Source: a virus
Direction: 5' to 3' (one strand)
IMG/VR virus record: IMGVR_UViG_3300046007_009559
Coordinates: 1 to 20,533 of that record
Length of the DNA stretch: 20,533 nt
In this document: one piece after another, positions 19,653 to 20,250 of the stretch
Layout: each line of letters starts with the position of its first letter
Numbering within the stretch: position 1 is the stretch's first letter
Translations under genes and position numbers: made by a program
The notes under the pieces: model-generated
What the model saw: the letters and a program-made list of their open reading frames with translations, nothing else
Databases searched by the model: none
What the model was told of the DNA's origin: nothing

Positions 19653-19865
19653 GTGTGTCCAATATTAGGTATCCCCCTCAAATGGAATAAAGGTAAAGCC
19701 TATGATAACTCCTATAGTTTTGATAGAATTGATAATAATGGTGCGTATGAAATAGGAAATATTGTTGTGGTATCTAATCGTGCTAATAGACTTAAGGGTA
19801 ATGCAACGGTTGAAGAATTAGTTAAGATTGCGGAGTTCTATAAAAATATTGACAATTTAAAATAA
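19653..19865 (+). CDS. HNH-like (endonuclease VII-like) protein, start uncertain
   Basis: From the first canonical start (GTG, 19653) the 70 codons read CPILGIPLKWNKGK, then SFDRIDNNGAYEIGNIVVVS and NRANRLKGNATVEEL. This is the phage HNH/endonuclease VII-like pattern (C-x-x-L-G-x-P-L, S-x-D-R-I-D, Y-x-x-G-N, S-x-x-A-N-x-x-K). Related-looking sequence continues upstream in frame to about 19545 (KSSATRRGIPFRLTKLQLYG), but there is no ATG, GTG or TTG there. It shares the terL frame, separated by two stops. HNH proteins near terminases can assist DNA cutting; this one may be degraded or use a rare start. Confidence 0.55.
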   Translation: MCPILGIPLKWNKGKAYDNSYSFDRIDNNGAYEIGNIVVVSNRANRLKGNATVEELVKIAEFYKNIDNLK

Positions 19866-20250
19866 GGCATTATAATTAATCATAACACGGCTCTGAGTCA
19901 CGAGAGTTCTTTAAATTTATCGTACTGACTGATGGAAAGACATCACTATGAATAAAACAATATGGTTTTGTCACGATGATAACGTGCGCTAAGAGAGCTT
20001 AATCAACTACACCATGTTGTTTTATTGATAGTACGCGCATAGCGCACCGGTAATGGCACGACGCTCAGAAATAGGAGACTTGGGATTGGCTGAAAGTATG
20101 CCAACAAATACTGAGATTACTATCAAATTTCCTCAGCCTATCGGGAATTAAATAAGATAGGAGCGCATCGAACCAGCTTATGCGTAGTGAGTGGACTGGT
20201 GACTGCTGGAAAGACAGCAACTATCAAATCCCCTCAAATATCTAATCAAA
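19866..20250. ncRNA. Strongly structured non-coding segment (candidate RNA)
   Basis: No convincing gene. A 21-bp stem (19946-19966 with 20011-20031; one mismatch, one G-U) encloses a loop whose GTGCGCTA (19984-19991) can pair perfectly with TAGCGCAC (20040-20047) outside it, a pseudoknot. Two hairpins share the loop GAAAGA: GATG/CATC (19931-19944) and TGCTG/CAGCA (20204-20219). More stems: CCTATC/GATAGG (20137-20161) and CGCAT/ATGCG (20164-20184). Known RNA family not identified; the strand is presumed plus. Confidence 0.5.

What the first reader, a model, noticed from the sequence alone, without database searches (positions are those of the whole stretch)
19931..20219. Pseudoknotted structured RNA candidate between the HNH ORF and HU
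A 21-bp stem, an 8-bp perfect GC-rich pseudoknot, and two hairpins with the same GAAAGA loop but different, compensated stem pairs (GATG/CATC versus GCTG/CAGC). ACTATCAAAT followed by CCTCA also recurs (20119 and 20220). Such compensation implies selection on RNA structure. It matches no RNA class I can name.
Basis: partly seen in the sequence, partly recalled or inferred. Interest (0 to 1): 0.7.

Follow-up and report, generated by a model that had tools for sequence, protein, structure and literature searches.

The report
Modular structured RNA shared by phages
Between two genes of this phage lies a folded non-coding RNA whose roughly 100-letter core recurs, with matching base-pair changes, in more than 80 viral sequences including unrelated phages, matches no catalogued RNA family, and is built from exchangeable modules, one of them shaped like a tRNA; what it does is unknown.

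Summary
Confirmed: the long stem (19945-19966/20011-20032; 0/300 shuffles), the two compensated GAAAGA hairpins and the ACTATCAAAT repeat. Not supported: the 8-bp pseudoknot (19984/20040), which competes with a conserved hairpin and is not kept when the stem's cap changes. The heart is 20025-20126: a P1-closed domain ("core A") with inner helices and invariant GGAGACUUGGGA, UGAAAGUA and UAAU. Core A occurs in 81 IMG/VR contigs, two Superficieibacter genomes, a Salmonella phage-plasmid and a 294-kb Erwinia phage, one copy per record checked. Covariation is overwhelming (12/13 inner pairs and 7/8 P1 pairs change on both sides; no shuffle reaches the scores). No Rfam family matches it; another module in one array weakly resembles STnc100. 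Caps of the stem are freely exchanged; one is a tRNA-like domain above Rfam's cut-off. X' (20025-20032) is complementary to both an upstream and a downstream element, in unrelated sequence versions. A 12/12 consensus promoter precedes the RNA; a relative shows promoter and terminator around a 322-nt unit. Most likely a trans-acting phage RNA whose long stem is cut or unwound so that X' closes the core. Function unproven.

The parts
19849..19876 (+). sigma-70 consensus promoter TTGACA-16-TATAAT; transcript start inferred near 19883
   Evidence: 12 of 12 consensus positions; 10 of 54 loci have a promoter of 11 or more here, 0 of 270 shuffles; the 10 include the near-identical window clade. Start site not mapped
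19931..19944 (+). GAAAGA hairpin 1 (GATG-GAAAGA-CATC)
   Evidence: recurrent compensated hairpin
19945..19966 (+). 5' arm of the long stem; its first 8 nt are X5' (ACTATGAA)
   Evidence: 0 of 300 shuffles; the X5'-cap-X' layout recurs in relatives
19967..20010 (+). cap of the long stem, exchangeable between phages
   Evidence: 26 distinct caps counted in relatives, including one tRNA-like cap
20011..20032 (+). 3' arm of the long stem; its last 8 nt (20025-20032, TTGATAGT) are X'
20025..20126 (+). core A: domain closed by P1 (20025-20032 with 20119-20126)
   Evidence: P1: 96.5% of cells paired, covariation 0.906 against 0.279 in shuffles; model R1 hit 20032-20117, 107.9 bits
20035..20045 (+). 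P2 hairpin GCGC-AUA-GCGC
   Evidence: hairpin present in all relatives in two alignment phases; left out of the covariation count
20048..20060 (+). P2a small hairpin CXG-UAAUGGC-[C/A]YG
   Evidence: X-Y occurs as UA, GC, AU and CG; UAAU invariant
20064..20068 (+). P3 5' arm (pairs with 20111-20115)
   Evidence: 5 of 5 pairs changed on both sides in some sequences
20069..20085 (+). invariant internal strand AAAUAGGAGACUUGGGA
   Evidence: GGAGACUUGGGA has no change in 25 aligned sequences
20086..20104 (+). P4 hairpin UUGGC-UGAAAGUAU-GCCAA with invariant loop UGAAAGUA
   Evidence: 5 of 5 pairs changed on both sides
20105..20115 (+). conserved CAAAUA strand and P3 3' arm CTGAG
20119..20126 (+). 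X3' (ACTATCAA), 3' arm of P1
20138..20200 (+). module D: hairpin 20138-20160, then H-type pseudoknot candidate (20163-20168 with 20180-20185; ACCAG 20172-20176 with CTGGT 20196-20200)
   Evidence: stem differs compatibly in three versions (window clade, L022/L053, L038); few sequences
20204..20219 (+). GAAAGA hairpin 2 (TGCTG-GAAAGA-CAGCA)
20220..20229 (+). second ACTATCAAAT element; no further X' follows before HU

Best explanation
A phage-encoded, non-coding structured RNA that acts in trans, a member of a widespread modular RNA family that Rfam does not hold. Shown by sequence comparison: a conserved domain (core A) closed by helix P1 (X':X3'), preceded by a long stem (X5':X') with an exchangeable cap and by a GAAAGA hairpin; X' is complementary to both X5' and X3', so the two helices exclude each other at X'. 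Inferred: the RNA is made from the promoter at 19849-19876; the long stem forms first; cleavage of the stem (RNase III is the obvious candidate, from general knowledge) or branch migration frees X', which then closes P1 and lets core A fold. Inferred: the invariant strands of core A are its working surface and bind a host component common to the hosts of these phages. The cap seems to do little beyond ending the helix.
For: Covariation in all helices of core A. A model finds L002, which was not used to build it, at E 4.8e-10. One copy in each of eight records searched whole. Unrelated neighbours: terminase and HNH, primase and PhoH, terminase small and large subunits, GroES-like co-chaperonin, tRNA genes, which speaks for action in trans. 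Promoter and terminator around a 322-nt unit in L068. X5', X' and X3' stay complementary in two unrelated sequence versions, and L023 changes all three arms together.
Against: No transcript data. In the window no terminator follows, so the RNA may be part of a longer transcript. Computed energies favour the long stem over P1 by about 7-9 kcal/mol, so closing P1 needs cleavage or a partner. L049 and L071 have core A with no long stem found, so the hand-over is not general. No binding partner found. Many promoter-bearing loci are close relatives.
Confidence: 0.5

Rival explanations
1. A cis-acting leader (riboswitch-like or protein-binding) that controls the gene downstream, HU in the window.
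For: No terminator between the RNA and HU; in L018, L021 and others core A ends about 55 nt before a GroES-like gene, in L049 before another ORF. Invariant internal strands would suit a ligand pocket.
Against: Downstream genes are unrelated from phage to phage, and in about a dozen loci a terminator follows the core directly.
Confidence: 0.17
2. A processing or antitermination element of long untranslated phage transcripts and tRNA operons: long stems are cut, or boxA/boxB-like signals keep RNA polymerase going.
For: Stem modules lie between tRNA genes in L092 and N4 and between Q and the holin gene in L093. Enterobacterial stem arms read TGCTCTTT, like boxA (from memory), and the GAAAGA hairpin recalls boxB (from memory).
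Against: The window's stem has no boxA-like sequence. Exact conservation of core A strands is more than a processing stem needs. Free-standing 322-nt unit in L068.
Confidence: 0.17
3. A base-pairing sRNA like STnc100/PasD that regulates mRNAs with Hfq.
For: A module in the same L007 array matches STnc100 below its cut-off; PasD-type prophage sRNAs are Hfq-bound and abundant (PMC13192938).
Against: Core A has no model match to STnc100; its invariant strands lie within a folded domain rather than in a variable seed. No target searched genome-wide.
Confidence: 0.1
4. A DNA-level element: a packaging or recombination hot spot whose inverted repeats only look like RNA helices.
For: Near terminase genes in 16 of 86 loci, many loci being short; modules look shuffled at ACTATCA repeats.
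Against: Compensatory changes in helices with strand-specific invariant loops, G-U pairs, and a promoter and terminator on the same strand where present. Terminase is often not near.
Confidence: 0.05

Closest known systems
STnc100 (Rfam RF02076) and PasD, prophage sRNAs
   Same: The third module of the L007 array matches STnc100 (38.5 bits) in the outer frame: GGTGAAT, a hairpin, CACCGGGAGGCACCCGG, closing stem. Phage-borne, near Q and lysis genes.
   Different: Below the cut-off of 47; core A itself has no match; STnc100 lacks the invariant strands of core A. Kinship is by neighbouring module and frame only.
GOLLD and ROOL RNAs
   Same: Phage or prophage RNAs often near tRNA islands; GOLLD can hold a tRNA in a linker (PMC12286853).
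   Different: No Rfam match; 322 nt in L068 against many over 800 nt for GOLLD; oligomers untested.
tRNA and tmRNA (tRNA-like domains)
   Same: The cap of L048 scores 34.5 bits with the Rfam tRNA model, cut-off 29; caps of L021 and L022 have canonical T arms.
   Different: Acceptor end runs into the long stem, anticodon arm degenerate; the window's cap is not tRNA-like.
Lambda boxA/boxB (nut) sites
   Same: GAAAGA-loop hairpin and TGCTCTTT in enterobacterial stems resemble boxB and boxA (from memory, a lead only).
   Different: Hexaloop, no boxA in the window, no N-like protein tested.

Membership tests
STnc100 (RF02076) | Score at or above the Rfam gathering cut-off (47 bits) | tested here: not met
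   No match in the window; 38.5 bits for another module of L007
STnc100 (RF02076) | Hfq-dependent base pairing with mRNAs | not testable with these tools
   Needs RIL-seq or mutants
GOLLD / ROOL | Rfam model match | tested here: not met
   Window and ten relatives, gathering threshold; six relatives, E up to 2
GOLLD / ROOL | Homo-oligomeric RNA cage | not testable with these tools
   Needs cryo-EM or native mass
tRNA | Rfam tRNA model at or above 29 bits in the cap | tested here: inconclusive
   Met by L048 (34.5 bits); L053 only a T-arm fragment, L093 weak tRNA-Sec; not in the window
Group I/II intron | Rfam intron model match next to the HNH gene | tested here: not met
   No match; relatives have other neighbours
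Protein-coding gene | Conserved open frame across the core | tested here: not met
   Forward frames over the core are at most 79 aa and vary between loci
Known riboswitch class | Rfam riboswitch model match | tested here: not met
   No match at gathering or at E up to 10

The most novel reading that the evidence does not exclude
A large, unrecognised superfamily of modular phage RNAs: one frame holds exchangeable central domains (core A, STnc100-like, others), each preceded by a long helix whose cap may be a tRNA that lost its anticodon arm, and each governed by a three-way strand exchange (X5', X', X3') that times folding or release of the domain during infection.
Probability: 0.35. Interest if true: 0.88.

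Novelty: new variant of a known kind. Interest (0 to 1): 0.7.

Why it matters
A compact RNA with invariant internal strands, kept in single copy by phages that share little else, points to a common host target or process that phages address with RNA instead of protein. It gives a defined family with a covariance model, may link poorly understood prophage sRNAs (STnc100, PasD) and non-coding stretches of tRNA islands, such as the 1.5-kb gap in phage N4, to one architecture, and offers testable cases of tRNA-like domains used as helix caps and of RNA strand exchange.

Tried and rejected
Rfam at gathering and permissive thresholds: only chance matches in the window. rRNA and RNase P mimicry or antisense pairing: of 20 comparisons only a 9-mer in the 16S rRNA beats the shuffles, not followed up. 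Intron hypothesis: no model match, other neighbours elsewhere. UCCCAAGUC, the exact complement of the invariant strand, occurs only in one module type of L022/L053/L063, so it is no general partner. The pattern gave two chance genome hits without the structure, L087 and L088. Relaxed patterns added mostly chance hits; only L098, L101 and L109 score with the model. Terminase proximity as a rule: 16 of 86 loci within 3 kb. 246 Enterobacteriaceae genomes: only the known one matched, so the RNA is rare in chromosomes. A tool count of P1 failed because MAFFT put gaps in; redone by script on 18 hand-listed arm pairs. MAFFT aligned P2 in different phases, so P2 was left out of the covariation count. 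My first query of L014 used wrong coordinates and was repeated. Literature searches found no description of the core.

Full report
What was checked. The window is a 20.5-kb virus record. The interval lies between a short HNH gene (ending 19865) and an HU-like gene (from 20328); no ORF of 60 aa or more lies between them. PHROGs identifies terminase small and large subunits, an HNH endonuclease and a DNA-binding protein around it. No Rfam family is matched and there is no tRNA or tmRNA.

The long stem is real and far outside chance. Both GAAAGA hairpins are real and belong to a recurring element found mostly just 5' of ACTATCAA-like sequences, with at least six stem versions. The repeated ACTATCAAAT marks positions that serve as helix arms. 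The proposed 8-bp pseudoknot is not kept: it would need the 3' half of a conserved hairpin (20035-20045), and relatives whose cap differs mostly show only chance complementarity.

Relatives. A distant blastn found a 41-nt match in Erwinia phage pEa_SNUABM_48 beside a tRNA-Asn gene and a 70-nt match in a Salmonella phage-plasmid. Pattern scans then gave 81 IMG/VR contigs and two Superficieibacter genomes; relaxed scans added three more that the model confirms. In 25 aligned sequences GGAGACUUGGGA, UGAAAGUA and UAAU do not vary; L002, L098, L101 and L109, outside that alignment, each differ in one to three of these bases.

Structure of the core. On 25 sequences the inner helices P2a, P3 and P4 have 96.3% of cells paired, 12 of 13 pairs with changes on both sides, and a covariation score of 0.741 against 0.241 in shuffles and at most 0.148 in slid versions. 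The structure was written by eye, but RNAalifold on its own finds P3 and P4. The closing helix P1 is TTGATAGT/ACTATCAA here, GTTGTGGTG/CACCACAAC in enterobacterial phages and GTTTTGAGAT/ATCTCAAAAC in L049. Over 18 distinct arm pairs 96.5% of cells pair, score 0.906 against 0.279; that list was made by hand, so this test is less strict. A covariance model finds every relative tested once, and L002, which was not used to build it and carries two extra hairpins, at E 4.8e-10. Eight records searched whole have one copy each.

Modularity. Upstream of core A nearly every copy in the window's group has X5'-cap-X', where X' is also the 5' arm of P1. The script counted 26 distinct caps, some of them close variants; loops run from a few nt to about 140 nt. 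The cap of L048 is a tRNA-like domain of 34.5 bits with a degenerate anticodon arm; caps of L021 and L022 carry canonical T arms, and caps in an E. coli prophage and in phage N4 look similar by eye, although the models give only weak matches for L053 and L093. In enterobacterial copies a further hairpin P5 has a loop (AUCAGC) complementary to the P2 loop (GCUGAU); one module of L092 has AUCAGU with ACUGAU, a compensated change (seen by eye, not tested statistically). What looks like the same frame with other central inserts occurs in L040, L092 and L093, and the third module of the L007 array matches STnc100 at 38.5 bits, below its cut-off of 47.

Expression. In the window a 12-of-12 sigma-70 consensus lies at 19849-19876. 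Of 54 loci, 10 have a promoter-like match of 11 or more upstream of the core and 0 of 270 shuffles do; these 10 include the near-identical window clade, so they are not all independent. About a dozen have a terminator-like hairpin just after the core. L068 defines a 322-nt unit from promoter to terminator. The window has no terminator. No transcript data were available.

Mechanism. Direct evidence covers the folds only. The three-way complementarity X5'-X'-X3' exists in two unrelated sequence versions, and L023 changes all three arms together. Energies favour the long stem over P1 by about 7-9 kcal/mol, so P1 would need cleavage of the long stem (RNase III would be the obvious enzyme, from general knowledge), branch migration or a partner. 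L049 and L071 seem to have P1 without a long stem. Unrelated neighbouring genes and single copies favour action in trans. The partner is unknown; comparison with E. coli rRNA and RNase P RNA gave nothing convincing.

Comparison. Its setting is like that of GOLLD and ROOL (phage RNAs near tRNA islands, PMC12286853), but it matches neither. It may share part of a frame with STnc100/PasD-type prophage sRNAs (PMC13192938) but is not a member by the tests made. The literature searched has no description of the core.

Noticed in passing
L089 (phage N4, record 32113-33631): The 1.5-kb gap between gp47 and gp48 holds what look like several unannotated tRNA genes, degenerate tRNAs capping long stems, and a module related to the one found in 103 phage records.
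   Followed up: partly
L092 1000-2560 (E. coli plasmid pCREC455-3): tRNA-Arg, Thr, Ser and Ile genes are interspersed with frame modules that carry different central inserts; 823 of 5426 E. coli genomes hold a match to the frame.
   Followed up: partly
L022, L053, L063, about 380 nt 3' of core A: A second frame module contains UCCCAAGUC, the exact complement of the invariant GACUUGGGA of core A.
   Followed up: partly
L022, terminase large subunit ORF upstream of the RNA: The ORF appears to hold an intein-like stretch before the terminase sequence resumes (read by eye).
   Followed up: no
L007-L015, 3' arms of the long stems: Many arms read TGCTCTTT, like the boxA antitermination signal (from memory).
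   Followed up: no
L002 2940-3000: The Erwinia phage copy of core A carries two extra hairpins between the 5' arm of P3 and the invariant strand, so that joint tolerates insertions.
   Followed up: no
L011 290-377: Two CRISPR-DR4 repeats on the same viral contig.
   Followed up: no
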